A program made the translations under genes and the position numbers. The notes under the pieces were generated by a model. The model ran no database searches. It saw nothing but the letters and a program-made list of their open reading frames with translations, and was not told the origin of the DNA. A stretch of 64,000 bases of DNA from Acidimicrobiaceae bacterium (GTDB lineage: Bacteria > Actinomycetota > Acidimicrobiia > Acidimicrobiales > RAAP-2): positions 1-64,000 of the forward strand of contig PLWZ01000072.1 in NCBI GenBank assembly GCA_003151235.1, in the 5' to 3' direction. This document shows positions 291 through 58,713 of this stretch, one piece after another. How positions within the stretch are numbered: the stretch's first letter is position 1; every line of letters starts with the position of its first letter.

Positions 291-1553
291 TCAGGTCCTC
301 GCCGGTAGCGCTTTCGTCGTTGCATCAAGTGCCTTGGCGAGAGTCGCGAGGGCCTCCCGCATGCGCTCGTTGGTTGGGGCTCCTGTGTACAGATTCAGCG
401 TGACAGTTGGCCGAGCATGACCGAGGATGTACGAAACAGTCGCTGGATCCATGCCCTCCGTCATCATTACGGTCGCCGCGAAATGGAGTAGGTGGTGAAC
501 GGTGATGGTCTCCAGCCCGGCATCATCTACAACGCGCTTGACTGCTCGACTAATGGCGTTCGTTGAGTAGGGGGCACTCCCATCCAGCTCAGGGCTGAAC
601 ACGTAGCCGTCCGGTAACAGCGAGAGATCAAGTCTGGCGGCCTCGCTCTCACAATTCTCCCTATGCCAGCGCAGTGCCTCGAGTCCTGCTCCCAATAAGG
701 GGAAGGTCCGGATCCCCGCCTTGGTCTTCGGTGGCCCTTCGGCGCCATCGCTGAATGACCGAGAAATGCTGATCACTCCACTCTCCAGATCAACGTCAGA
801 CCAGCGGAGCGCGCAGATCTCACCCAGCCGGGGCCCGCAAGATGCCGCCAGTCGCAACAAGTTGGCTAGCCAAAACTTGTCGTGACGATGGCTGGCGTCC
901 CGTCTTGAAAAGTCAGCATCGATGTGCCAACGGTCGCACGCTTCGATGAGAGCAATGACAGCTTCGGCCGATGGTGCCGACCGCCGATTGTCACCCACCG
1001 GGTCCAGGCTGGCGAAGTCCGCTTCGTTGCGGTCCACCCGCCGCTGCTTGACGCCGTATGCCAGTGCCGCCCGGATGAGGGCGTGACAGCGACGGACGGT
1101 CGCTGCAGACCGGCCGGCTTCGTACATCCCCTGATACAGATCGCTGATCTTGCGAGCCGTCAGCTTGGTTAGCTGAATCCTCCCCAGGGTGGGGCGGATC
1201 GTTGCTTCGATCACTTGCCCGTTCGTCCGGGCAGTCGAGGGCTTCCAGCTCCGCCCGGTGTCCTTCACCCAATCGTCAAGCAGGTCCCCGAACGTCTCCC
1301 TACCCCCCGCGGTGCTCCCCTGGTCGATCTCCCGCTGAATGGCCCTCAGGCGCCGCTGTGCGTCCTTAGAGGTGCCTCTGACGGTCTCGGTTCGGAGCAA
1401 GGGCGCGCCCTTCGGGCTGTAACCCCGCAGAGCTCGGACCTTGTACCGCTTGCCAGCCTGGACCTCGATGACCTGGCCCGTCCCCGGTGCTCGCACGATG
1501 CCTCCCTGGTGGCGTCTAGCGCGTGCGCCGAACTCTAGCACTGCTTCTAGCAC
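291..1553 (-). CDS. Tyrosine recombinase/integrase, catalytic Arg substituted
   Basis: This is a phage-type site-specific integrase of 420 residues: an N-terminal arm-binding region, a SAM-like core-binding domain (about 85-180) and a C-terminal catalytic domain. The first catalytic Arg (R242, in GPRLGE), His379 (LGH) and the Tyr nucleophile (Y389, NLYTG) are present. The normally invariant HxLRH box reads HHLLH (353-357), so the second catalytic Arg is Leu356 (codon CTC, one base from CGC). It lies immediately left of the 48-bp att copy at 1613-1660 and reads away from it, in the same arrangement as integrase 2 beside the tRNA. It therefore belongs to a different element that continues left of the window. 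Family knowledge says this Arg is needed for strand exchange, so the enzyme is probably inactive. The start could be internal. Confidence 0.93.
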   Translation of the reverse strand: MLEAVLEFGARARRHQGGIVRAPGTGQVIEVQAGKRYKVRALRGYSPKGAPLLRTETVRGTSKDAQRRLRAIQREIDQGSTAGGRETFGDLLDDWVKDTGRSWKPSTARTNGQVIEATIRPTLGRIQLTKLTARKISDLYQGMYEAGRSAATVRRCHALIRAALAYGVKQRRVDRNEADFASLDPVGDNRRSAPSAEAVIALIEACDRWHIDADFSRRDASHRHDKFWLANLLRLAASCGPRLGEICALRWSDVDLESGVISISRSFSDGAEGPPKTKAGIRTFPLLGAGLEALRWHRENCESEAARLDLSLLPDGYVFSPELDGSAPYSTNAISRAVKRVVDDAGLETITVHHLLHFAATVMMTEGMDPATVSYILGHARPTVTLNLYTGAPTNERMREALATLAKALDATTKALPART

Positions 1554-1612: not shown

Positions 1613-1660
1613 GGAGCCTGGGAGGGGACTCGAACCCCTGACCTGCGCATTACGAATGCG
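1613..1660 (-). repeat. att site: 48-bp copy of tRNA-Thr 3' half (attL)
   Basis: This is identical over 48 bases to 11187-11234 and runs from the 3' end of the tRNA-Thr gene to the base of the anticodon stem. The rest of the tRNA is absent here, so this is not a functional tRNA. Such duplications of a tRNA 3' end are what tyrosine integrases create on insertion. The pair bounds an element of about 9.57 kb. Because a second integrase lies immediately outside it, the same sequence probably also serves as the right end of a neighbouring tandem element. Confidence 0.93.
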
Positions 1661-1759
1661 ATCCCGTTCCTGTCAGGGCACTACTGGCGAAGACTGTAGG
1701 TATCTGACCAGGGCTTATCGTGACCCCGTACCACGGGCACGCACGTGGCGGACTGTATA

Positions 1760-1778
1760 GATATGGAGCGGATATGGA
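1760..1778 (+). repeat. Paired GATATGGA repeats, left end of element
   Basis: GATATGGA occurs at 1760 and again at 1771, exactly 11 bp apart, about 100 bp inside the left att copy. The same pair with the same 11-bp spacing and orientation occurs at the right end (11138 and 11149). One-helical-turn spacing at both ends is what is expected of arm-type integrase binding sites. Confidence 0.55.
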
Positions 1779-1822
1779 TCGGCGACGGCAGTGATTCCAA
1801 ACCCTCCCTCCCAGTCAGGCGC

Positions 1823-2143
1823 TCAGGCGGGGGCGGACGCTTCTTCCGTGTCCGACATGTCCCGAACGGCGCCAACAGCGGCCTTAACGACTGCCCAAAG
1901 CGGGTGATCCTGTCGGAGGTAGTACTGGCGCCGGGTGCCACGATCTCGAGGAAGACGGCTCACCATCCCCAGTTCGGTCAACCTTGCGAGCTCCGTGCCC
2001 ACATTGCTTTGAGGCAGCACCGTCCCTTGGACTGCTTCCGTCTGAAAGAAGAGAGGGTCGTCGTGGAGCATGACCCACTGAGCCACGATCAGCCGGGCCG
2101 CTCGTCCAAAAAGCCTGTCTCCGACCTGAGCAAGATCCGCCAT
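1823..2143 (-). CDS. Winged-helix transcriptional regulator
   Basis: A small (106-residue) DNA-binding protein. The central part (about 35-80), with an SNVGTELARLTELGMVSRLP stretch followed by a basic RGTRRQYY wing, is typical of ArsR/MarR/PadR-like winged helices. No metal-binding cysteines are seen. It is divergent from the DUF5678/retropepsin pair; the gap contains a perfect 7-bp inverted repeat (2151-2167) that overlaps where both promoters must lie, so it probably represses itself and the pair. It is cargo of the integrated element. The ligand or signal cannot be told from the sequence. Confidence 0.75.
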   Translation of the reverse strand: MADLAQVGDRLFGRAARLIVAQWVMLHDDPLFFQTEAVQGTVLPQSNVGTELARLTELGMVSRLPRDRGTRRQYYLRQDHPLWAVVKAAVGAVRDMSDTEEASAPA

Positions 2144-2150
2144 AAACCAT

Positions 2151-2167
2151 AATCTAGTTACTAGATT
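2151..2167. promoter_or_regulatory. Palindromic operator between divergent genes
   Basis: AATCTAGTTACTAGATT is a perfect 7-bp inverted repeat around a 3-base centre. It lies 8 bases upstream of the winged-helix start and about 70 bases upstream of the DUF5678 gene. It is the only strong dyad in this intergenic region and the likely binding site of the adjacent regulator. Confidence 0.6.
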
Positions 2168-2236
2168 CTGTTTGTGCTGGCTGGCCGATTCACTACCCTC
2201 GTGCGACGCTTAACTTCCGCACGAGGGATAGGAACG

Positions 2237-2455
2237 ATGCCCAAAGAACGACCCGATCGGACGCCCGCCCGTCGGCTTCATGAACTGCTCCAAGGGTTCG
2301 ACGGGCAATGGGTTGCGATCCAGGACAGCAAGGTCGTCGCCGTCAACGCGTCGCCGTACGAGCTGGTTGCAGAGCTCCGGAGGCGAGGACTCGATCGGGC
2401 CAGCATCATTCGGGCTCCGGCGGCTTCAGAACCCGAGATGGTCGCGTTCGGCTGA
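2237..2455 (+). CDS. DUF5678-like small protein
   Basis: The 72-residue product contains the FDGQWVAIQDSKVVAVN core followed by an ELVAELRRRG helix and an IIRAP strand, which is the pattern of the DUF5678 family (function unknown). The ATG at 2237 is preferred over the earlier in-frame start because a purine-rich AGGAACG precedes it. The next gene, a retropepsin-like protease, begins 7 bases after the stop, so the two are one transcript. The pairing of a DUF5678 protein with an aspartyl protease is, from memory, a recurring one; whether the protease cleaves its partner is unknown. Confidence 0.72.
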   Translation: MPKERPDRTPARRLHELLQGFDGQWVAIQDSKVVAVNASPYELVAELRRRGLDRASIIRAPAASEPEMVAFG

Positions 2456-2462
2456 CTCGTTC

Positions 2463-2954
2463 GTGACAGCGCCGTTCCCCTGGCTCTTCGAATACTCCGA
2501 TGATCCTGTAGTTGGAACGCAGTCTCGGTGGGGTCGAGCGGTGCTCCGTCCGTTGGTCGAGGTTCGCCTGATCGGACCACACGGGGTCAGTGATCGAGTT
2601 TTCGCCCTAGTTGACTCCGGAACGGAATACACCCTCATCATGCGATGGGTCGCTCAGAGCATCGGGGCCGACGTGTCCTTCAGCTCCGCGATAAGCCTCG
2701 GATTAGGTGGTGAAACGCTGAGGGTTGCTCCTGCCGATGTCGAACTTAGATTTGGCCCGCCAGACGAGCCGGAATCTGAATGGCATCAATGGAACGCGCA
2801 AGTCGGGGTCGTTCAGCACTGGAAAGCGCAATGGCCAGTGGTGCTCGGTCAACGCGGCTTCTTCGACGAATTCACGGTCAGCATGAGCCGAAGCTCCCAG
2901 CTTCTCGTTGTGACAGAACGAGACGAGCTCGATCATCAATATCTGCTGGAGTAG
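2463..2954 (+). CDS. Retropepsin-like aspartyl protease
   Basis: The 163-residue product starts at GTG 2463, just after the DUF5678 gene. The signature FALVDSGTEYTLI (catalytic Asp about residue 51 in the DSG triad) sits in a beta-strand context typical of single-domain retroviral-type proteases, which act as dimers. A later LGQRGFFDEFTV segment matches the conserved C-terminal portion of bacterial members. There is no signal peptide, so it should act in the cytoplasm. It is co-transcribed with the DUF5678 gene and probably controlled by the divergent winged-helix protein. Substrate unknown. Confidence 0.75.
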   Translation: MTAPFPWLFEYSDDPVVGTQSRWGRAVLRPLVEVRLIGPHGVSDRVFALVDSGTEYTLIMRWVAQSIGADVSFSSAISLGLGGETLRVAPADVELRFGPPDEPESEWHQWNAQVGVVQHWKAQWPVVLGQRGFFDEFTVSMSRSSQLLVVTERDELDHQYLLE

Positions 2955-2987
2955 CTCCGTTGAGCAACTTCGCTCACAGCCGACGTC

Positions 2988-3299
2988 CTATGCCACCTCC
3001 ACGCCAGGATCGACCAGCTTCACATCGAGCACTAGGCACGCGCTTGGCGATTGAGCTCCCCAGAGTCGTATCCCGACCACCACGGCATCGGCTCGTCCAT
3101 GTGGGAACCGATCCGAGTCGAGAGGGACTTCCGGACCCACCTTTAGGACACCCTGTCCGTTAGTGATTTCAATCCGGGCTCCAAGAGGAAGCGGGGCCCA
3201 CCCCTGATATTGCATGAGCGTTCCTCCGCCGTCGACGTCCATGATCAACGTAACGGTCGGAACTGGGAACGCCGGGGGGTCAATCGGTTCATCATCCAC
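2988..3299 (-). CDS. Hypothetical protein, last gene of PIG-L operon
   Basis: A 103-residue protein I do not recognise. It is predicted to be mainly beta-strand (alternating hydrophobics in the VTLIMDV and ADAVVVGIRLWG segments), with an acidic, proline-containing N-terminus. It lies 39 bases downstream of the HEPN-like gene on the same strand and is probably the last cistron of the PIG-L, small-protein, HEPN-like transcript. A role as partner or antitoxin of the HEPN-like protein is possible but rests on position alone. Confidence 0.5.
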   Translation of the reverse strand: MDDEPIDPPAFPVPTVTLIMDVDGGGTLMQYQGWAPLPLGARIEITNGQGVLKVGPEVPLDSDRFPHGRADAVVVGIRLWGAQSPSACLVLDVKLVDPGVEVA

Positions 3300-3338
3300 A
3301 TTGGCAAGCTACCTCTAGGCAGAGGTAAGGCTGGTTGT

Positions 3339-3866
3339 CTAGGAAGAGTCAGTCTCCTGCTCCTCGTGGTGTCTGCGATTGAGCTCGCGCTCGAGCTTGC
3401 CCAAACGCTCGTCCGCCTTCCGGATCTCGGCGGGAAGCTCGTCGAGTTGGTCATAGCCGATCGGATTTGGCTGGATTCCCCGTCCCTTCGTGCGCCGACT
3501 GGACACGTCCAACGTCGTCCACACTCGATGACCCGACCCCAGAGACAACGGCGCCCATTGCGAGTGCACGGCCGCATTGCGCTGTTCGCTCAGCGCCTTC
3601 GCTTCCTTCCTCCAGGCTCGGAACTCGCCCAGGAGGTCAGCATCTGGGCCGGCCTTCAGGAGGTCGTCTGCCAGCTCCCACAGTCGCACCACAGATAGTC
3701 CAGCCGTCAGCAGCGACATCAGGACGTTGCCGGGAAAGAGATCAGTGATCGCCCAGATGAGCTGGACCGATCGGGTTTCAAGCCCGCTCCAGGCAAAGAC
3801 CACTGCCCCGAGTTTCGGGAACAGCTCTTCCTGCATTGTCTCGGCGGTGGGCGGTTCCGATGTCAC
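3339..3866 (-). CDS. HEPN-like protein with R-x4-H motif (unassigned)
   Basis: A 175-residue, largely helical protein. Residues 96-101 read RNAAVH, followed by SQW. An R-N-x3-H motif at the end of a long helix is the catalytic signature of HEPN-domain ribonucleases found in toxin-antitoxin and abortive-infection systems. The N-terminal half (AWSGLETRSVQLIWAI, LWELADDLL) gives the expected helices. The C-terminus is a charged coiled-coil-like segment. The GTG start (3864-3866) overlaps the TGA of the upstream small gene. I do not know a named family for it; the HEPN assignment is inference from the motif and fold pattern. Confidence 0.55.
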   Translation of the reverse strand: MTSEPPTAETMQEELFPKLGAVVFAWSGLETRSVQLIWAITDLFPGNVLMSLLTAGLSVVRLWELADDLLKAGPDADLLGEFRAWRKEAKALSEQRNAAVHSQWAPLSLGSGHRVWTTLDVSSRRTKGRGIQPNPIGYDQLDELPAEIRKADERLGKLERELNRRHHEEQETDSS

Positions 3867-4077
3867 CGGTGCCCCACCGACTCGGGCTCCTCGACGCCCT
3901 CTCGGTGCCCCTCACTGCTCCACACAGGGATGCGCTTGCCGCCGGCGAGCCTCGTGTGCCCGCTCACGCTGACCGGCTCGGGACACAGTGTCGGTCGCCC
4001 GCTACGAGTGCCATCGGCAACCATCCGCCAACACGCCCGGGCTCGGAGAACACGGCATCGGCGTAGTGGTCAGTCAC
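3863..4077 (-). pseudogene. Small AVFSEPGR-family gene, copy 1, with 1-base frameshift
   Basis: The GTG start (4077-4075) overlaps the stop of the PIG-L gene. The first 18 residues read HYADAVFSEPGR; the frame must then shift by one base (a missing T before TGTTGG) to continue as CWRMVADG, then LCPEPVSVSGH, ending GHREGVEEPESVGHR and a TGA at 3863. The result matches copy 3 (58501-58713), which is intact and nearly the same length. The upstream and downstream genes both overlap it by GTGA junctions, so it was a working cistron of this operon. A sequencing error rather than decay cannot be excluded. Confidence 0.7.
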
Positions 4078-4772
4078 GAACGCCCAGTCGAGCGAGGCGA
4101 CAGAGACCAATACCCTTCGGCCAGCATTGCCTTCTCGCGTCGTTCCGCTCCCAAACCTCGCATTTGTGTGGGATAGCAGTCGAGGGCGGCGGCCTTGTCG
4201 CTCGAGCGAGGCTCAGCGTCCAGGCCAACCGGCGCAGGTGCCATGTCGGACAGTTTTTCGAGCGCGGCTTCGATGTTGGGCTCTTCATACGCGTAGGGCA
4301 GGTCCTTATAGGCAAACCACGCCAATTCGGAACTTCGCCGAGCAGCCCATGCCGCACCCGCCGCGGTGAGCTCGTGGTCGCGGTGACCGAGGCCCAGCGG
4401 CAAGATGACCGTTTGTGTACCGAGCCGCCTGAGCGCCCCCCTGATCTTTTCGCCGATCACGTGGGGCGCTGGCTCCGATTGAGGGCGCCGGTACTGGGCG
4501 TCAAGAAAGTCGAGCCGATGCCCGCTGGCGTCGAGACGGCTGAGAGCGTCATTGTCCTCGGCGATTCGTAGCTCTACGACATTGATTCCGACTGGAATAC
4601 CACAGTCCACTGCGTCCCAGCCCCGCCGAATCGTCCAATCGACACCCTCTCCTCCGGCAAAGACGGTCATGACGACGCAATCGCCCAGTTGGGGTATCAG
4701 CTCGCCGCAACTCAAGACCGCGTCGTCCATGTGCGGGGACAACACAAGAACGGGCTGCGGAATCGTCACCAT
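4074..4772 (-). CDS. PIG-L family deacetylase
   Basis: LmbE/PIG-L proteins are zinc hydrolases that remove N-acetyl groups from sugar derivatives. The N-terminal metal motif is SPHMDDAVLSC (residues 12-22), a variant of PHPDDE in which the last Glu is replaced, and the later GHRDHELT supplies the HxDH metal and catalytic residues (about 128-135). Length (232) is normal. It is the first gene of a leftward operon with the small AVFSEPGR gene, the HEPN-like gene and a hypothetical protein. As cargo of a mobile element it is unlikely to be the mycothiol deacetylase. Substrate unknown. Confidence 0.85.
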   Translation of the reverse strand: MVTIPQPVLVLSPHMDDAVLSCGELIPQLGDCVVMTVFAGGEGVDWTIRRGWDAVDCGIPVGINVVELRIAEDNDALSRLDASGHRLDFLDAQYRRPQSEPAPHVIGEKIRGALRRLGTQTVILPLGLGHRDHELTAAGAAWAARRSSELAWFAYKDLPYAYEEPNIEAALEKLSDMAPAPVGLDAEPRSSDKAAALDCYPTQMRGLGAERREKAMLAEGYWSLSPRSTGRS

Positions 4773-5052
4773 CGTGCACCCTTACTCATGGCAGTGAGTG
4801 CGCGATCTTGTGGGACGTCACCGACGGCGCCCACGAAGAGCACGTCTCGTAGCGGCCGACGTCGCTGTCCCGATCGGATGCCGTGCGTAGAAGACGCCCC
4901 GCACCGGTTTCGGTGTCAGTCGGCGCCGGGTACTCCTGACCGGGTGCATTGCCCGACGGACCTTGCGAGGGACGAACCAGCGGAAGATGGCCATCGGGGC
5001 TCCGCTCTCAGGTCATCGCGATCAACCGACCGCGCACATCGGTGGGCCCTCC

Positions 5053-5892
5053 CTATTGGGGGGTGAAGCTGGTCGAACAAGCGGCTTCTCCGTTGTTGAT
5101 GTCGACGTCGACCTGCACCGTGTAGTCGATTGTGGGGTGACCAATATCGAACGTGATTGACGCCGATCCACTGCCATCAGTCGTCCCCGAATCGGTCGTG
5201 GTTGTTGTCTTGTAGTACTTGGTCACCAACACTGGAGCATCGAGCACGTTTGACGTCACGTTCACGGTGTCGTCACCACTGTCGCCCGGTGTGGAGTTCG
5301 ACATCGTGGCCGTGCAGGTACTACCAGGCTGGGCCGTGGTTCCCTGCGTCCAGGTTCCACAACCCTGCACTAAGAACCTCATTGCGTTTGACGCCAACGT
5401 CACGGTCTGCGGGCCGTCGCCGAAATTGTTCGAGATGATGCTGTTGCCCGAGTCGAGAAAGTCACTGTCCTGTTCCCAATAGCAGTCCGGGCCACCCGGT
5501 GCCTCATAGGTCCCTGGGGCGATCGCGATACCAATGGCGTAGCCACCGTCACCGAAGGTGGTGGCTTCCGGCCCGCTACTCGGAACGACGGTCCACAACC
5601 CACAACCCTCGCTCTGGAAACCTCCGTCGGTCGGCGCGACCGTCACGACATCCGGGCCGTTTAGGAAGTTGTTGGCGATGATGCTGCTCTCCGAGCCCGA
5701 GAGGTCGGTCGATCGCTGCCAGTAGCAGCCCTGCCCCCCAGTGCTCTCGTAAGTGCCCGGCGTCACGACACCGCCAACGTTCTGGCTGTCGACCGATCCC
5801 ACTGGAAACGTCCCGTCGCCGAAAACATTGCACCCGGTGAGAATGACAACGGTCGCGACAATGATGCCGATAGTGAGCAGGCGTCTTGACAT
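5053..5892 (-). CDS. Secreted lipoprotein with two internal repeats
   Basis: The N-terminus has a short basic stretch, a hydrophobic segment and the lipobox LTGC, so it is exported and lipid-anchored. I chose the ATG at 5892 (MSRRLL) because GGAG lies upstream at good distance. The mature part contains two related units of about 60 residues, each with PGTYES/PGTYEA, a GCYWQR/DCYWEQ motif, SSIIANNF/NSIISNNF, and GCGLW/GCGTW; conserved Cys pairs suggest one disulfide per repeat. A Ser/Thr-rich C-terminal domain of beta character follows. Function unknown; it is cargo of the integrated element. Confidence 0.8.
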   Translation of the reverse strand: MSRRLLTIGIIVATVVILTGCNVFGDGTFPVGSVDSQNVGGVVTPGTYESTGGQGCYWQRSTDLSGSESSIIANNFLNGPDVVTVAPTDGGFQSEGCGLWTVVPSSGPEATTFGDGGYAIGIAIAPGTYEAPGGPDCYWEQDSDFLDSGNSIISNNFGDGPQTVTLASNAMRFLVQGCGTWTQGTTAQPGSTCTATMSNSTPGDSGDDTVNVTSNVLDAPVLVTKYYKTTTTTDSGTTDGSGSASITFDIGHPTIDYTVQVDVDINNGEAACSTSFTPQ

Positions 5893-5927
5893 TTCGCGCT
5901 CCAACCCCTTGAGCCGAGACGGAGGCC

Positions 5928-6020
5928 CTAAGGTCGAAGGTCGTCAACGTTGGGGAGACGGTAGCACCGCCAGCACCGGCCTCGCTCGGAGAAAACGGCC
6001 TCGGCGTAGTGCGGTAGCAC
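5928..6020 (-). pseudogene. Truncated AVFSEPGR-family fragment, copy 2
   Basis: Reading leftward from a GTG at 6020, the first residues (PHYAEAVFSERGRCWR) match the N-terminus of the small protein family seen at 3863-4077 and 58501-58713. After that the similarity ends and a stop follows at residue 31. The metal-binding-like C-terminal half is missing, so this is a 3'-truncated copy, 36 bases upstream of the lipoprotein gene. Whether the short peptide is still made is unknown. Confidence 0.5.
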
Positions 6021-6635
6021 GCCGGGATCGTAGGGACCGGTTGTCACAGGCGGAACGGTCGGGGCGGAAGCTGATTGCCGCGCCCGAACGCTGCGCCTAC
6101 GGTTCCGATCATGACTTCTTCTCGCTTTGTCGCCCTCTGGGTAGTTCTCGGCACCGCCGTTTACGCTGGACTAATCATCGGAGGACTCTGGATCACCCAC
6201 ACACCGCCGATTGGTTAGGCGGCATGGCGCCGGGAGTGCGGAGCCGGCTCGGTCGTGGGAACGTTCATGGCACACCAACGTCCGGGCTTGAAACCCGTAC
6301 CGACTGGCAGGCGCTAACGGTGCCGGGCAACCGGGTGGGACGGGTGGAGGGGTAACCCCGGGGGGGGGCCGATGGCCCGCATAATTGATGTCGGCCCGCC
6401 GGCAAGGACCCCTTGACCAGGGCCTTTGTATCCCGGTACGTGGAGCAGGGCAGGTTGCCTACGGGTCTGGGGCTTTGCCGTCTGCCAGCCAAAACAGCGG
6501 ATCGGCGCATGTATGACGTGGCCTGCTAAACGGGCCGGGGGAACGCAGGGGTGGGGTAACGGGGTGGGTGGCGGCCCCGTTTGGGTGGGGTGGAATAACC
6601 GGCACTCCGGCAATCCGTCCCTGACATCGGGATCA
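6021..6635. other. Non-coding G-rich region with quadruplex motifs
   Basis: No convincing gene of normal size is present in these roughly 600 bases, which separate the element's cargo from its replication and integration genes. The plus strand has two four-run guanine tracts: 6333-6352 (G3-T-G3-AC-G3-TGGA-G4) and 6548-6568 (G4-T-G4-TAAC-G4-T-G3). A hairpin (GGGGTAACCCC) and nine consecutive G follow the first tract at 6349-6368. Such sequence could be an origin of transfer or replication, a non-coding RNA or simply a transcription boundary; nothing decides between these. Confidence 0.45.
6111..6218 (+). CDS. Possible 35-residue single-span membrane peptide
   Basis: An ATG at 6111 opens a short frame whose product is mostly one hydrophobic helix (VALWVVLGTAVYAGLIIGG) with a short polar tail ending PPIG. 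No ribosome binding site is visible. It is on the opposite strand to its neighbours in the element. It could be a genuine small membrane protein or chance; I have no homologue in mind. Confidence 0.28.
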   Translation: MTSSRFVALWVVLGTAVYAGLIIGGLWITHTPPIG

Positions 6636-7169
6636 TCACTTGACCTTTGCCGCGGCCGCAGCGCCAGCCACCGCAGCGGCGTTGAGGTGCTCGTGCCGTG
6701 CCGGGCCGACGAGCGGGGCGATGCGCAACTCGAGCGCCCGGGTGAGTACATCGGAAAACGACCAGCCATCCAGTGGACTCGTCGCGACCATTACGTACGG
6801 ACCATTCTCACCACGCAGCGCGCGGTTCGCATCGCCCAGTACCGCGACGCTGACATCTGTGGCGAGCTTGTATGCCTGGAACGATTCGAATAGCCCGGTC
6901 ACCCCAACCGATTGGTCCACCAGGTCGGCCTCGAAACGAACGCGGGCGGACTCGCGTTTGTCGCTCAGTTCACGGATCGGCCCCGATGTCATCGAGGCGA
7001 GGAGAAACTCCACCTCCACGTCCCGAGCTACTTCTGCTTGCCGTTGCCCCAGTGCTTCGCGTTTGGCCTGGGTCTCGGCCACCTGGGCGGCGACCTTCTC
7101 CTGCGCTGCTCGGGCTGCTGCGGCTGCTTGACGCTGCACTTCCTGGGCGTTCAATGCGTCGATGGTCAT
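6636..7169 (-). CDS. Hypothetical element protein with coiled-coil N-terminus
   Basis: A 177-residue protein not recognised. Residues about 5-60 are Ala/Gln/Glu-rich and should form a long coiled coil; the middle part (about 85-150) has mixed hydrophobic strands (DVSVAVLGDA, PYVMVATSPLDGW); the C-terminus is Ala-rich. It is the last gene in the leftward run that begins with integrase 2, 24 bases after the preceding proline-rich gene, so it belongs to the backbone of the mobile element. Confidence 0.6.
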   Translation of the reverse strand: MTIDALNAQEVQRQAAAAARAAQEKVAAQVAETQAKREALGQRQAEVARDVEVEFLLASMTSGPIRELSDKRESARVRFEADLVDQSVGVTGLFESFQAYKLATDVSVAVLGDANRALRGENGPYVMVATSPLDGWSFSDVLTRALELRIAPLVGPARHEHLNAAAVAGAAAAAKVK

Positions 7170-7193
7170 CTGGGTTCCTTTTCGTGGCTGGCG

Positions 7194-7505
7194 CTATTGG
7201 GACGGGACGTAGCCGGCGGGGAGCGGAAGGTCGAGGTGCTTGCGGGCCTCGTCCGCTATGCGTTCGAGCGAGGTCGCACCTGCCGGCGGTGTCGGCACGG
7301 GGACGTGGCTTCCGCTCGGTGGGGATGTCGGCGACGGGGATACGGCCGATACGGTCGGGTCCGGGGTTGTCTCTGGTGGCAAGGGCCGGCCAGTGGCTCC
7401 ATTGACGGAGCGGGGAAGCTTCCGCAACTGGTCGGCTATCCGACTGTGCGAGCTCTCGGGTCGGGTGTAGCCGTCTCCTGATTCGACGGGTCGGGTGCTG
7501 GTCAT
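7194..7505 (-). CDS. Hypothetical Pro/Ser/Thr-rich element protein
   Basis: A 103-residue protein with a charged N-terminal helix (SRIADQLRKLP), a low-complexity Pro/Ser/Thr linker (about 40-75) and a short C-terminal helix (LERIADEARKHLDLP). The two helices resemble each other (RIADQLRKL and RIADEARKHL), suggesting a repeated short motif joined by a flexible linker. It lies between the VRR-NUC gene and the coiled-coil gene on the same strand. Function unknown. Confidence 0.5.
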   Translation of the reverse strand: MTSTRPVESGDGYTRPESSHSRIADQLRKLPRSVNGATGRPLPPETTPDPTVSAVSPSPTSPPSGSHVPVPTPPAGATSLERIADEARKHLDLPLPAGYVPSQ

Positions 7506-7662
7506 TTGTTGTGCTCCTTCAGTGCTTGGGATTGGAGAGGTGCCCTTCGAGCAAGCTGCCTTGCGGCCAAGGGCAAGACCGTTTGCCGCGGGCCAGGGTG
7601 GCCGGCGGAGGTCAGCGGGACGCGGCTACCAACCGCGCGCTCGAGGGCAGAAATAGAGCGGT

Positions 7663-8001
7663 TCACGCCAGCACCCGCTCGACCTTCGGCCAGTCAGACG
7701 GGCGGAAGACGTACACCTCAGCCTTGGCCGCCTCGAGTGCCGTTATCCAGTCGCTCTGGAGCGTGCTCAGTACGCCGTGTTCGCTCTTGAGCTCGGCGCA
7801 GACGACGCGCTCTCGGACGAGGCACAGATCCGGCCACCCCTGCGCGTCGAAGGACACCGCCGTGCGCCATCCCGAAGCGGTACGGCCGGGACGGAAATGG
7901 CAGACCCGCCAGCCCTTTAGGTGGGCGAGCTCGACCACCTGCTCCATGAACTGGACCTCCGTCGTCGAGGCGTCGAGAAGGGCGCGGGTGTCGGTGGTCA
8001 T
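7663..8001 (-). CDS. VRR-NUC domain nuclease
   Basis: The 112-residue product is a stand-alone VRR-NUC (PD-(D/E)xK superfamily) protein. Visible motifs are a GWPDLCLVRE segment (catalytic Asp), VVCAELKSEHG (the ExK pair) and LQSDWITALEAAKAEVYVFRPSDW, which is the usual Q-x-x-W-x-x-L helix and final strand. The ATG at 8001 overlaps the stop of the SWIM-protein gene in an ATGA junction and is preferred over the longer upstream frame. Stand-alone VRR-NUC proteins are common in phage and element replication modules, where they are thought to process branched DNA. Confidence 0.85.
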   Translation of the reverse strand: MTTDTRALLDASTTEVQFMEQVVELAHLKGWRVCHFRPGRTASGWRTAVSFDAQGWPDLCLVRERVVCAELKSEHGVLSTLQSDWITALEAAKAEVYVFRPSDWPKVERVLA

Positions 8002-8231
8002 CGGGCGACACGACCGGCCGAACAGGTGACCTGCTTGACCGCTTCGACGTGCGAACACCGACCACGAAGCTCGGGGCACGAGCACTCCCAGCGAGCCGAG
8101 AACGAGTCCCAGCGGACCTCGTAGACGTCGTGGTCACCGGCGACGGTGGCAGCCACGAGCTGGTCAGTGGCAAAGCGGATTTGGACCCTCGCCTCGGAAA
8201 GAAGTGCGCGGGCCTTCGTGGCAACCGTCAC
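7998..8231 (-). CDS. SWIM-type zinc finger protein
   Basis: The 77-residue product contains YEVRWDSFSARWECSCPELR followed by GRCSHVEAVKQV, that is CxCx(n)CxH, the SWIM zinc-finger pattern preceded by its typical beta-hairpin. The N-terminal 30 residues form a helix. It overlaps both neighbours (the HTH protein upstream and VRR-NUC downstream) by 4 bases, so the three are translationally coupled. SWIM modules bind DNA or proteins; here it may load or guide the nuclease, which is inference from the coupling. Confidence 0.75.
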   Translation of the reverse strand: MTVATKARALLSEARVQIRFATDQLVAATVAGDHDVYEVRWDSFSARWECSCPELRGRCSHVEAVKQVTCSAGRVAR

Positions 8232-9037
8232 GAGCCCACCCCTTGAAGGGACGGCGAGAACTGGCAGTCGACGTGGATCTGGCCGTCGTCAGCGGAGATG
8301 GCGGCATCGTGCCGCCCGATGCTTTCGGAGCAGCGAGGGCAGCTCGGGAAGGTGCGGGTCATGCACGCGGTGTCATCCTCGGCCGGTTCGAGCTCGAGCA
8401 GAGCGGCGAGCTGCATCGGAGCGATGCCCGGATGCTCAGAGAGAAGCCCGAGCGCGCGGTCTAGGTGCTCTTCGCGAACGCTCTTGAGCGTCGTCGCCTT
8501 GTAGGCCGCGGGGTTGAGGATGCGTGAGGTTGTCGCCGCGATTCGTTGGTCCGCAATGATGCCGAAGGCTTGAGAGATCGTCTCGTCGTCTTCCGAAGAA
8601 GATGACGATTCAATTGACGGTTCAACTGATGATTCTGGTGGCACCGGTGCCACCCCACCCCCCGGCACACGCGCCACCCCACCCCCGGCACCGGTGCCAC
8701 CCCATCCCTGGCAATCTGCCACCCCACCCCCTGGCACATCGCCACCGTCTGCCTCCGAGATATGGACGACGATCCGGTACCTGTTCGACTTGGTTCCGCC
8801 GGACGTGCTGGCCTTGCCACCGCCTCGAATCACCATGACCTCGCCGAGATTTTCGAGGCTTCGGATGCGGCGCTGAGTCGTCCGCTCGTCGATCCGACAC
8901 TTGCGGGCGATGGTCCTGACCGACGGCCAGCACTCGCCCTCATCGTTCGCCATGTCCGCCAGCGACAAGAGCACGAGGAGATCCGTGCCGGCGGCCTTCG
9001 AGTTCTCCCAGACGGCCGACATGACCTTGATGCTCAC
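8228..9037 (-). CDS. HTH replication-initiator-like protein (lambda-O type layout)
   Basis: The 269-residue product begins with a winged-helix domain (about 1-75; SVRTIARKCRIDERTTQRRIRSLENLG) of the HTH_36 type seen in phage and plasmid replication proteins. Residues about 95-135 are a Gly/Pro-rich linker encoded by four DNA repeats (8649-8746), then an acidic Ser/Glu run, a helical region and a C-terminal CPRCSES segment with a later Cys. The layout of an N-terminal DNA-binding domain with direct repeats in the middle of its own gene recalls lambda O. The gene is coupled to the excisionase upstream and the SWIM gene downstream. Role inferred, not shown. Confidence 0.65.
   Translation of the reverse strand: MSIKVMSAVWENSKAAGTDLLVLLSLADMANDEGECWPSVRTIARKCRIDERTTQRRIRSLENLGEVMVIRGGGKASTSGGTKSNRYRIVVHISEADGGDVPGGGVADCQGWGGTGAGGGVARVPGGGVAPVPPESSVEPSIESSSSSEDDETISQAFGIIADQRIAATTSRILNPAAYKATTLKSVREEHLDRALGLLSEHPGIAPMQLAALLELEPAEDDTACMTRTFPSCPRCSESIGRHDAAISADDGQIHVDCQFSPSLQGVGS
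8649..8740. repeat. Four iteron-like direct repeats inside the initiator-like gene
   Basis: Copies of a GCCACCCCACCCCCGGCA-like unit begin at 8649, 8673, 8696 and 8718, a period of 22-24 bases. They encode the GGGVA-type Gly-rich linker. Period and placement are those of origin iterons embedded in an initiator gene, but simple low-complexity coding sequence is the alternative. Confidence 0.5.
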
Positions 9038-9249
9038 GACTCGCCTCGCAGCCCGGTCCCGGGATACACCGTGTCGCGAACGTCACCCGGGGTATCGGCC
9101 CACTCGTCGAGCAACCGTTCCGAAATCACAAGGCGCCGACCGATGCGCCGGACTGGCAGGTGGCCATCACGCGCTAATCGACGAAGGGTCTCAGCGGAGA
9201 TGTTTCGGAGGTGGTCGGACGCCTCCTGCATGTTCAGGAACCGACTCAT
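9034..9249 (-). CDS. xis: Excisionase-like DNA-binding protein
   Basis: The 71-residue product has the MerR-like helix-turn-helix of excisionase-family proteins: a QEASDHLRNISAETLRRLARDG helix pair, then HLPVRRIGRRLVISERLLDEW. It should bend DNA at the att arms and direct excision rather than integration. It overlaps the small ORF upstream and the initiator-like gene downstream by 4 bases each. Being separate from the integrase gene but in the same transcript is usual in actinobacterial integrative elements. Confidence 0.8.
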   Translation of the reverse strand: MSRFLNMQEASDHLRNISAETLRRLARDGHLPVRRIGRRLVISERLLDEWADTPGDVRDTVYPGTGLRGES

Positions 9250-9440
9250 GCCACACCGGCCAGAATCGAAACCAGGCGAACGCGCTGGGCGTCGGTCAGG
9301 CCGGGCGCCTTGCGCCGAATTTCGACGGCCAGCCGTTCTGCGGCAAGGGCGCGTCGCGCTTCGACGAGTTTGGGGTCGTCGGCTGCCCGGTCACGGCTTA
9401 AGGCGGCGACCTGGGCTCTGTAGTGCTTCCACGGTTCCAA
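9246..9440 (-). CDS. Small hypothetical element protein
   Basis: A 64-residue, charged, helical protein (Ala/Arg/Glu-rich) with no recognised domain. Similar small helical ORFs are common just before excisionase genes in actinobacterial elements. Its stop overlaps the excisionase start, which supports it being translated. Confidence 0.6.
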   Translation of the reverse strand: MEPWKHYRAQVAALSRDRAADDPKLVEARRALAAERLAVEIRRKAPGLTDAQRVRLVSILAGVA

Positions 9441-9538
9441 CGTGGGGTCCTCTCGGGGCAGCGTTGTCCACTGCCCCTACTGGGAGCACTACTCGCCGAG
9501 TCAATTAGTGGCCGGCGGCGATCGGCCTTCCTGCTTTC

Positions 9539-9964
9539 CTATGGTAGCTGCACGAGCGACAAGTCAAGGCGATGCCGACCGTGCTCGTGCCAAGTGCGGG
9601 CGGCCGCCACGAGTTCGGCCCGGCGAATCGGCTGGTCCCGCCCGCACTTTCGGCACCGCCATCGGTCGGTCATGCGAACGGCCATGCGACCGTCGAGCAT
9701 GGCCTGGTGCTGGGCGGCCACCGCATCAGGGGAGAGCGGGGCGGCCGCCCGCGTCGTCGCTTCACTCTTGGAAGTGAATCCGTCGCGGAACGCCGTATCG
9801 CCGTCCGCCCAGATGTTGTTGACGACGGTGCACTGCCAGTCCTCGGCCCTTAGCCCGACTTTCCCCAGCACCTTCTCCGGGTGCTGGCCCTTGTCGGTAC
9901 AGATGATGCGAACCACGTCTCCCCGTTGTGCCCAGATCTCCGATGGCGACCGGCGCCGGCTCAT
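9539..9964 (-). CDS. Hypothetical protein with C-terminal zinc-ribbon half
   Basis: The 141-residue product has an N-terminal part with two strands (GDVVRIICTDKG, WQCTVVNNIW) and a C-terminal WRCRKCGRDQPIRR segment. The CxxC knuckle, together with upstream Cys or downstream His (ARTWHEHGRH), could bind zinc. Its ATG overlaps the integrase stop by 4 bases, so it is produced from the integrase transcript. A role in DNA binding or regulation of recombination is plausible, but no family is recognised. Confidence 0.6.
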   Translation of the reverse strand: MSRRRSPSEIWAQRGDVVRIICTDKGQHPEKVLGKVGLRAEDWQCTVVNNIWADGDTAFRDGFTSKSEATTRAAAPLSPDAVAAQHQAMLDGRMAVRMTDRWRCRKCGRDQPIRRAELVAAARTWHEHGRHRLDLSLVQLP

Positions 9965-11121
9965 CGTTCCCCGCCGGTCGGTAACGCCAGCGCCCTGCCC
10001 AGCGCGTCCGCTGCCTCACGGTCCCGCTCAGGTAGAGCGTGAGAGTAGACCCGGAGCGTGGTGGAGGCGTCGCGGTGTCCGAGGCGACCGGCGACCGTCC
10101 TCACGTCGGTCCCCCCGCCGATGAGCTGGGTGGCGGCGAAGTGGCGGAGCTGGTGAAGGTGAACGTCTACCCGTGCCTTAGTGGCGATGTCGCGGACGTA
10201 GTGCGACATCGTGTCCGGTGAGATCGGGGTCGACAGGTTGTAGGTCAGCACCGGTGTGTCGTCGGTCACCGTGACGCCAAGGTCGCTCGCTCGGTCCTCG
10301 AGCCGGGCCCGCTGGCGGCGTAGGACCTCGAGCCCGAACGGGTCGAGGGCCAGCACCCGGGCCGCGTGAGTCTTGGTGTCTTTGGTGATCCACTTCCCGG
10401 CCACTACCGCGACCGACCGCTCGATCCGAAGGGTCGCCGCGTCCAGGTCCACGTCGCCCCACCGAAGCGCACACAGCTCGCCTCGTCGAGCGCCGGTAAC
10501 GGCCGCTAGGGCGATCAGGGCCGCCATGTCCGGGTCGTCGGGCTCGGCGGCGGCGATCATGGCTTGGACGTCCGCGGGCGTTGGCGCGGCCTTCGGAGCC
10601 TGCCTCAAGGGCGGCGGCGTGGTCCTCGCGGCTGGATTGGCGGTCAGGTCGCCCCACTTGACCGCCTGAGCGCACGCAGCGGAGATGACGGCATGGACCC
10701 GGCGGACCGAGGCCGACGACAAGGGCTTCTCCCGGGTGCGGAGCAACGTGTAGAAGGCGTCCAGGACCTCGGGGCCGAGCTTGCGCAGCTCCACCTCGCC
10801 TAGAACGGGCTTGATCGTCTTGTCGATCGTCCTGCGGTGCTCTCGGACGGTTGTAGGCGAGAGGTCCTTGAGCACCGTGGCCCGTGCGAGCCATCGGTCG
10901 AGCAGGGACCCCAGCGTCTCGGCCGGCCCGGCGTGGTCAACGGCGCCCACCTCGGCCACCAGCTCGGCCAGCTTCTCGTCGGCGGCGTCCGCGTTGCCGT
11001 ACGCGGTCCTGGACACGTACACGGGCTTGCTCGTGACCGGCGAGCGGCCGGCATAGGCCCGGAGCTGCCAGACGGCCGTGTCGCCCCTGCCCCGAATCCG
11101 TCGCCGCGAGCCTTTCGCCAT
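9961..11121 (-). CDS. int: Tyrosine recombinase/integrase of the 9.6-kb element
   Basis: The 386-residue product has an N-terminal arm-type DNA-binding domain (1-60), a core-binding domain (about 70-165) and a catalytic domain with all expected residues: Arg212 (TGARRGE), the intact HQLRH box (323-327), His349 (LGH) and Tyr359. The gene starts 67 bases from the tRNA-Thr gene and reads away from it, and a pair of GATATGGA repeats lies in the gap. It is the first gene of the element's leftward operon. Compared with integrase 1 (291-1553), which lacks the second Arg, this one looks functional, so the element may still excise. Confidence 0.95.
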   Translation of the reverse strand: MAKGSRRRIRGRGDTAVWQLRAYAGRSPVTSKPVYVSRTAYGNADAADEKLAELVAEVGAVDHAGPAETLGSLLDRWLARATVLKDLSPTTVREHRRTIDKTIKPVLGEVELRKLGPEVLDAFYTLLRTREKPLSSASVRRVHAVISAACAQAVKWGDLTANPAARTTPPPLRQAPKAAPTPADVQAMIAAAEPDDPDMAALIALAAVTGARRGELCALRWGDVDLDAATLRIERSVAVVAGKWITKDTKTHAARVLALDPFGLEVLRRQRARLEDRASDLGVTVTDDTPVLTYNLSTPISPDTMSHYVRDIATKARVDVHLHQLRHFAATQLIGGGTDVRTVAGRLGHRDASTTLRVYSHALPERDREAADALGRALALPTGGER

Positions 11122-11137
11122 GCACGTCAGGATACCG

Positions 11138-11156
11138 GATATGGATTCGATATGGA
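11138..11156 (+). repeat. Paired GATATGGA repeats, right end of element
   Basis: GATATGGA at 11138 and 11149 (11-bp spacing) lies between the integrase start and the tRNA-embedded att site, matching the pair at 1760/1771 in sequence, spacing and orientation. It is a likely arm-type integrase site that may also autoregulate the integrase promoter. Confidence 0.55.
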
Positions 11157-11186
11157 ACGCCTTTCCGGGCGCACCACTTCTGACCT

Positions 11187-11234
11187 GGAGCCTGGGAGGG
11201 GACTCGAACCCCTGACCTGCGCATTACGAATGCG
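11187..11234 (-). repeat. att site within tRNA-Thr (attR)
   Basis: The 48 bases are identical to 1613-1660 and run from two bases beyond the tRNA 3' end to the base of the anticodon stem. Integration restores an intact tRNA because the element carries the same sequence. Confidence 0.93.
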
Positions 11235-11261
11235 CTGCTCTACCGGCTGAGCTACCCAGGC
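11189..11261 (-). tRNA. tRNA-Thr (anticodon CGT)
   Basis: Read on the minus strand, all four arms fold: acceptor GCCTGGG/CCCAGGC, D-arm GCTC/GAGC, anticodon stem GCGCA/TGCGC with loop TTCGTAA giving anticodon CGT (threonine, codon ACG), and T-arm AGGGG/CCCCT with TTCGAGT. CCA is not encoded. It is the integration target of the element to its left. Confidence 0.95.
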
Positions 11262-58211: not shown

Positions 58212-58500
58212 AGCCACCTCGTCAGTCTCGGCTCCCCATGGGCACCACCTCATCGGATCGTAACGAGTCCCCAACAGCGTTGCCGAAGGGTGCCGGTCGT
58301 TCGGCCCGTGACCGTCGGCACTGCTCGGTCGTTTGCCTCTCGAGAACGGCAATGCGTTCCGACGTGTTGCATCCCGTTCGATCAATTTTGGCTCATGGCC
58401 CCCACGTTCAGCCCAGCTCTTCCACGAAGCGATCGCGTCGCTGGGCGAACCGGTCCCGACCGCGCGCTGTGAGTGCGAACCGGGGAGGGAGCCGGTGCCG

Positions 58501-58713
58501 TTACCGATGGCCCACCGACTCTGCCTGCTCAAGTCCTTCGCGGTGCACATCGCACGACCAGACCCGGATCTGCTCCCCGCCAACCAGGTGGTGGTTGCCG
58601 ACCCACACGACAGGCTCGGAGCAGTGATCAGGAGCACCTACGCCGGCCGTCTGGATCAGGCGCCAGCAACGGCCGGGCTCAGAGAACACAGCGGACTCGG
58701 AGTGGTCGAGCAT
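58501..58713 (-). CDS. Small Cys-containing AVFSEPGRCWR-family protein, copy 3 (intact)
   Basis: A 70-residue protein. Conserved features shared with the copies at 3863-4077 and 5928-6020: SAVFSEPGRCWR (residues 7-18), HCSEPVVW (30-37), IRVWSCDVHREG (49-60) and the C-terminal ESVGHR. Cys16, Cys31, Cys54 and His57 could bind one metal ion. The ATG shares one base with the stop of the upstream membrane-protein gene (TAATG), a re-initiation junction. I recognise no named family; function unknown. About 290 bases between this gene and the hydrolase hold nothing clear. Confidence 0.65.
   Translation of the reverse strand: MLDHSESAVFSEPGRCWRLIQTAGVGAPDHCSEPVVWVGNHHLVGGEQIRVWSCDVHREGLEQAESVGHR

What the first reader, a model, noticed from the sequence alone, without database searches (positions are those of the whole stretch)
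2988..4772. Mobile operon PIG-L, small Cys protein, HEPN-like protein, unknown: a possible new defence or toxin module
Four genes with GTGA overlaps or short gaps lie in the cargo of the element. The 175-residue protein has RNAAVH on a helix, the R-x4-H catalytic motif of HEPN RNases common in phage defence. A deacetylase as partner enzyme is unusual. The combination is not one I know.
Basis: inference. Interest (0 to 1): 0.7.

Follow-up and report, generated by a model that had tools for sequence, protein, structure and literature searches.

The report
Orphan HEPN-motif cargo, not conserved operon
A small mobile DNA element inserted at a tRNA gene carries, side by side, a sugar-deacetylase-like gene, a broken copy of a repeated local gene, and a rare gene resembling RNA-cutting defence proteins; nothing suggests they work together, but the rare gene is a reasonable single candidate to test.

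Summary
The four ORFs are real DNA features, but the "four-gene operon" does not hold up. (1) 4074-4772(-) is a PIG-L/LmbE-type deacetylase with its metal and catalytic residues intact. Its relatives occur in 35 of 247 class genomes, never beside the other genes in the 20 loci examined. (2) The "small Cys protein" is a frameshifted, Cys-losing copy of a dispersed ~70-aa Cys/His ORF family: at least 7 open copies elsewhere in this genome, others in its genus and family. The GTGA junctions flank two different reading frames. (3) 3339-3866(-) carries RNAAVH, in the RN-x3-H form typical of HEPN RNases. It is an orphan in all genomes sampled. Its only clear relatives are gp31 of two Gordonia phages, which conserve R96, N97, H101, W104 and E30. 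The fold could not be tested (AlphaFold pLDDT 43 and 53). (4) 2988-3299(-) has no relatives. The genes are cargo of a 9.6-kb tRNA-Thr element (48-bp direct repeats, own integrase) with a second element in tandem. Most likely: unrelated cargo genes, one of them a plausible stand-alone HEPN-type RNase. A joint PIG-L/HEPN system is unsupported. Side lead: the small ORF family marks modules shared between elements.

The parts
1613..11234 (.). Integrative element B (about 9.6 kb) between two copies of the tRNA-Thr 3' end; carries all four reported ORFs
   Evidence: 48-bp exact direct repeat 1613-1660 / 11187-11234; tRNA-Thr 11186-11261(-)
9961..11121 (-). Tyrosine integrase of element B
   Evidence: PHROG 1 integrase E 2.4e-66
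8228..9037 (-). Replication-initiation-like protein of element B
   Evidence: phrog_8540 E 5e-25
9034..9249 (-). HTH_17 excisionase-like protein
   Evidence: Pfam PF12728 E 4e-10
7663..8085 (-). VRR-NUC-like endonuclease domain protein (weak)
   Evidence: phrog_93 E 8e-9; PF08774 just below cut-off
5967..6011 (-). Truncated copy (first ~17 codons) of the dispersed small Cys/His ORF, directly upstream of the secreted-protein gene
5053..5904 (-). Predicted lipoprotein/secreted protein with Rv1352/Rv1906c domains; block 4900-6011 is 92% identical over 1112 bp to a second locus of the genome
   Evidence: NCBIfam NF053833 E 2e-39
4074..4772 (-). PIG-L/LmbE-type deacetylase; metal/catalytic residues present (SPH14-M-D16-D17, G-H130-R-D-H133)
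   Evidence: PF02585; aligned to Dbv21/Orf2* deacetylases
3863..4077 (-). Frameshifted copy of the dispersed ~70-aa Cys/His ORF family (the 'small Cys protein')
3339..3866 (-). 175-aa HEPN-motif protein (R96-N97-x3-H101-x2-W104); candidate RNase
3310..3327 (.). Perfect 7-bp inverted repeat TACCTCT-GCCT-AGAGGTA between the 175-aa gene and the next; possible operator or hairpin
2988..3299 (-). 103-aa ORF of unknown family, no credible relatives

Best explanation
The region is the cargo end of a small tRNA-Thr integrative element, made of independent genes that happen to lie in a row on the minus strand. The PIG-L gene encodes a probably active zinc-dependent amide deacetylase acting on a small glycosylated or amino-sugar substrate. 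The 'small Cys' gene is a dead copy of a dispersed small-ORF family of this bacterial lineage. The 175-aa protein is most likely a stand-alone HEPN-type, metal-independent RNase: R96, N97 and H101 would form the active site, usually at a dimer interface, and it would act as a toxin or abortive-infection factor carried by mobile elements and temperate phages. Shown: element boundaries, PIG-L family and residues, the frameshift and Cys loss in the small gene, the R-N-x3-H motif and its conservation in Gordonia phage gp31, and the absence of the gene set elsewhere in the sample. Inferred: HEPN fold, RNase activity, any defence or toxin role, independence of the genes.
For: Element limits and integrase. 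PIG-L family and residues. PIG-L relatives at E<=1e-8 in 35 of 247 class genomes, with no homologue of the HEPN-like, small or 103-aa protein in the 20 neighbourhoods examined. HEPN-like protein found only in this genome among 296 class, 396 phylum and 57 relative genomes, with the noise-level class hits shown to be shadow frames or unrelated ORFs. Gordonia phages RayTheFireFly and Melba gp31 are true relatives (pairwise BLASTP E 5e-9; 0 of 5000 shuffles reach the score) and keep FxAWRKEA...ExRNxxxHxxW. In profile comparison with HepT-like HEPN toxins the only aligned stretch is the motif itself, RNAAVHSQW on RDRLVHHYF (score 18.6; best of 20 column shuffles 14.3). Small ORF family.
Against: AlphaFold models of the 175-aa protein are unreliable (pLDDT 42.9 and 52.7) and Foldseek finds nothing, so the HEPN bundle is not shown. 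No Pfam, NCBIfam, PHROGs or PADLOC family hits it. The Ex3[KR] element reported for many HEPN domains is not present around the conserved E30. A contiguous same-strand layout with overlaps is what an operon would look like, so cotranscription of PIG-L and the HEPN-like gene is not excluded. The 1-nt deletion could be an assembly error in this draft genome.
Confidence: 0.55

Rival explanations
1. The HEPN-like protein and the 103-aa protein downstream form a toxin-antitoxin pair: the HEPN RNase is the toxin, the small beta-rich protein its inhibitor, with the palindrome 3310-3327 between them as operator.
For: 39-bp gap, same strand, perfect inverted repeat between them; HEPN toxins commonly sit in two-gene modules (PMC3710099, PMC7641770, found).
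Against: No relative of the 103-aa protein was found near any HEPN gene or at all; Gordonia gp31 has no counterpart next to it; the order would be toxin first.
Confidence: 0.15
2. PIG-L and the HEPN-like protein form a new two-enzyme defence operon.
For: Adjacent, same strand, inside a mobile element; active-site residues intact in both.
Against: Separated by about 200 bp that is a decayed repeat-family ORF; not together in any other genome, phage or plasmid sampled; no PADLOC match; the literature search found no paper joining PIG-L, HEPN and phage.
Confidence: 0.06
3. The 175-aa protein is not a HEPN RNase but an unrelated helical phage/element protein whose RN-x3-H is incidental.
For: No family hit, no reliable model; R-x4-H alone is common by chance (28% of shuffles).
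Against: The full RN-x2-[VILM]-H form is rare by chance (0.2%) and R, N, H and W are all kept in a homologue only ~30% identical.
Confidence: 0.24

Closest known systems
HEPN RNases (HepT/DUF86 type, Abi-type and stand-alone HEPN)
   Same: R-N-x3-H motif with polar residue after R and hydrophobic residue before H, placed at the end of a predicted long helix; mobile or phage context
   Different: No detectable sequence similarity beyond the motif; no nucleotidyltransferase partner; fold not shown; no Ex3[KR] motif
Gordonia phage RayTheFireFly/Melba gp31 (hypothetical proteins)
   Same: Homologous over about 100 residues (30% identity), all candidate catalytic residues conserved
   Different: Phage gene transcribed against the neighbouring minor tail genes, near a Fic/Doc 'toxin' gene; no PIG-L, small Cys or 103-aa partner
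PIG-L/LmbE deacetylases, closest solved relatives Dbv21 and teicoplanin Orf2* pseudoaglycone deacetylases
   Same: SPHxDDAVLS and HxDH motifs, overall family
   Different: Only the family is clear; no glycopeptide or glycosyltransferase neighbour here, unlike two of three Burkholderiaceae plasmid relatives checked
tRNA-targeting actinobacterial integrative elements
   Same: Tyrosine integrase beside the tRNA, att repeat from the tRNA 3' end, xis-like HTH, replication initiator
   Different: No conjugation genes recognised; a second element sits in tandem at the same site

Membership tests
HEPN superfamily | R-x4-6-H motif | tested here: met
   R96-N97-A-A-V-H101; conserved in Gordonia gp31
HEPN superfamily | Polar residue (mostly N, D or H) right after the R (PMC3710099) | tested here: met
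   N97, invariant in A1
HEPN superfamily | Upstream conserved acidic residue, typically in an Ex3[KR] motif, in helix 2 | tested here: inconclusive
   E30 is invariant but is followed at +4 by V/F, not K/R
HEPN superfamily | Helical bundle with the motif at the end of helix 3 | tested here: inconclusive
   Single-sequence models are mainly helical with the motif at the end of helix 76-100, but pLDDT is 43-53
HEPN superfamily | Profile similarity to a known HEPN family | tested here: inconclusive
   No Pfam/NCBIfam/PADLOC hit; hhalign against HepT aligns only the 14-residue motif
HEPN superfamily | Metal-independent RNase activity | not testable with these tools
   needs biochemistry
PIG-L/LmbE deacetylase (PF02585) | Family score above curated cut-off | tested here: met
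   36.3 bits against cut-off 28.2
PIG-L/LmbE deacetylase (PF02585) | (P/A)HxDD and HxxH metal/catalytic motifs | tested here: met
   PH14MD16D17 and H130RDH133
Conserved defence operon PIG-L + HEPN | Gene pair conserved in unrelated genomes | tested here: not met
Known anti-phage systems (PADLOC-DB 2.0.0) | Component model match | tested here: not met
   No credible match for any of the four ORFs
Dispersed small Cys/His ORF family of this lineage | Consensus VDHYADAVFSEPGRCWRMVHDGEGSGRPTFCEEP...VWSCDGHREG in one open frame | tested here: not met
   Window copy matches in sequence but is frameshifted and has lost the last Cys: decayed member

The most novel reading that the evidence does not exclude
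The dispersed small Cys/His ORF family (broken copy 3863-4077, truncated copy 5967-6011) marks the joints of a cassette-like system that shuffles gene modules between integrative elements of this lineage. In five contigs a truncated copy lies 0.1-4 kb upstream of a fuller copy on the same strand with DNA between; truncations and the window's 1-nt deletion mostly fall at codons 14-20; and the module 4900-6011 exists 92% identical beside another integrase and tRNA-Lys. The PIG-L and HEPN-like genes would be recent passengers of such a system.
Probability: 0.1. Interest if true: 0.55.

Novelty: new member of a known kind. Interest (0 to 1): 0.25.

Why it matters
If the 175-aa protein is a HEPN RNase it adds a sequence-orphan branch, shared by a chromosomal integrative element and temperate Gordonia phages, to a superfamily rich in defence and toxin proteins, and gives one clean gene to test. 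The main value of this check is negative: the eye-catching four-gene combination is an accident of position, with a dead repeat-family ORF in the middle, so a deacetylase should not be invoked as a defence partner on this evidence.

Tried and rejected
Pattern scans for relatives of the HEPN-like protein in genome contigs and viral contigs gave none; the single motif hit L068 has no matching ORF. Weak class-level matches were rejected as noise; for the frames behind the six matches were read. AlphaFold on the full protein and the core (118 aa) was too poor to use; the Foldseek result on the core is meaningless at that confidence. HEPN family PF18734 gave too few sequences to compare. The idea that the small ORF is a non-coding repeat (attC-like or MITE) was rejected: differences among the 7 open copies concentrate in third codon positions (0.21, 0.23, 0.42). 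Phage tblastn with the small protein gave only E 3-9 matches and none with an intact copy. No sigma-70 promoter above chance was found.

Full report
Where it lies. The window is the first 64 kb of a 164-kb contig (C70) of a 3.57-Mb draft genome in 93 contigs. A 48-bp exact direct repeat at 1613-1660 and 11187-11234 is the 3' part of tRNA-Thr(cgt) 11186-11261(-). Between the copies lie a tyrosine integrase next to the tRNA (9961-11121), an HTH_17 excisionase-like gene, a replication-initiation-like gene and a VRR-NUC-like gene, so 1613-11234 is an integrative element. A second integrase (291-1553, 34% identical to the first) begins 60 bp beyond the left repeat, as expected of a second element in tandem, cut off by the contig end. 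The reported ORFs are cargo at the far end from the integrase. Their third-position GC (0.60-0.75) is below that of the large chromosomal genes in the window (mostly about 0.8-0.94), in keeping with foreign origin.

The four ORFs. PIG-L: 232 aa, PF02585 at 36.3 bits against a cut-off of 28.2; nearest solved proteins are the glycopeptide deacetylases Dbv21 and Orf2*, with PHMDD and GHRDH aligned to their motifs. HEPN-like: 175 aa, RNAAVH at 96-101. 103-aa ORF: no family, no credible relative. Small Cys gene: see next paragraph. The GTGA overlaps exist (4077-4074, 3866-3863).

The small gene is a broken copy of a dispersed family. Searching the class with the 53-aa frame returned 7 strong further matches in the own genome and nothing convincing in 246 others. 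At DNA level the whole interval 4076-3862, exactly the space between PIG-L and the HEPN-like gene, is repeated. Seven copies elsewhere in the genome read as one open frame of 68-72 aa, consensus about VDHYADAVFSEPGRCWRMVHDGEGSGRPTFCEEPVVWVGNHRLVGGKQIRVWSCDGHREGVEEPESVGHR; their differences fall in third codon positions (0.21, 0.23, 0.42 per position), so it is a protein family, with three Cys and one His suggesting a metal site (inference). The window copy has a 1-nt deletion at codon 14-15, which splits it into a 37-aa and a 53-aa frame, and its last Cys is Ser. An intact copy used as query finds five matches in one of six other genomes of the same genus and weaker ones in five other genomes of the family, none in phages or viral contigs.

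No synteny. PIG-L relatives (E<=1e-8) occur in 35 of 247 class genomes; phmmer of all cargo proteins against all ORFs in 20 of these neighbourhoods finds only PIG-L. Three plasmid relatives in Burkholderiaceae lie among unrelated genes, two of them directly before a glycosyltransferase. The HEPN-like protein or its profile finds only itself in 296 class genomes (weak hits rejected), 396 phylum genomes and 57 close relatives, and nothing in plasmids. Samples overlap and are not exhaustive; metagenomes could not be searched.

What the 175-aa protein is. tblastn in phages gave a weak match to gp31 of Gordonia phages RayTheFireFly and Melba (E 0.03). Direct comparison shows this is real: BLASTP E 5e-9 for the pair, local score 93 against a shuffle maximum of 56 in 5000. 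The best-kept stretch is FrAWRKEA...EqRNaavHsqW / FkAWRKEA...ErRNsllHatW. In the phages the gene runs against the neighbouring minor tail genes, close to a Fic/Doc gene, a position typical of accessory genes. [quoted passage not shown] The first two are met, the helix position agrees with a low-confidence model, an invariant E30 exists but without the following K/R. Profile comparison to HepT-like proteins taken from the same class aligns only the motif. Membership in HEPN is therefore likely but not shown.

Mechanism. Most likely a single-gene HEPN-type RNase that limits growth of the cell or an incoming phage when triggered (inferred by analogy), and an independent deacetylase. Nothing links the two enzymes. 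Cotranscription is possible; a palindrome at 3310-3327 sits before the 103-aa gene.

Side lead. Window 4900-6011 (truncated small ORF plus lipoprotein gene) is 92% identical over 1112 bp to contig C42, near an integrase and a tRNA-Lys. Truncated and fuller copies of the small ORF lie on the same strand 0.1-4 kb apart on contigs C70, C83, C11, C42 and C27, and in a same-genus genome a homologue of the lipoprotein's C-terminal part lies between two copies. This looks like modular shuffling of element cargo; homologous recombination between repeats would be enough to explain it.

Verdict. An ordinary integrative element with an interesting orphan candidate; not a new four-gene system.

Noticed in passing
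window 3863-4077, 5967-6011, 58497-58712; loci L100-L107, L141-L144: Dispersed ~70-aa Cys/His small-ORF family in this genome and relatives, with truncated copies lying upstream of fuller copies on the same strand; most breaks fall at codons 14-20.
   Followed up: partly
window 4900-6011 and L145:5826-6936: A 1.1-kb module (truncated small ORF plus Rv1352-like lipoprotein gene) is 92% identical to a second place in the genome near an integrase and a tRNA-Lys.
   Followed up: partly
window 291-1553: Second integrase directly left of the att repeat: start of another element in tandem at the same tRNA-Thr, cut by the contig end.
   Followed up: partly
window 2174-2954(+): DUF5678 protein followed by a retropepsin-like (Asp_protease_2, sub-threshold) gene on the opposite strand, inside the element.
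   Followed up: no
window 1823-2143(-): Winged-helix/MarR-like regulator at the far end of the element, with a weak match to PADLOC candidate PDC-M05A (E 3e-5).
   Followed up: no
L008:1923-2771: Gordonia phage RayTheFireFly gp33, annotated toxin, is a Fic/Doc protein with a C-terminal DUF6941-like stretch, near the HEPN-like gp31.
   Followed up: no
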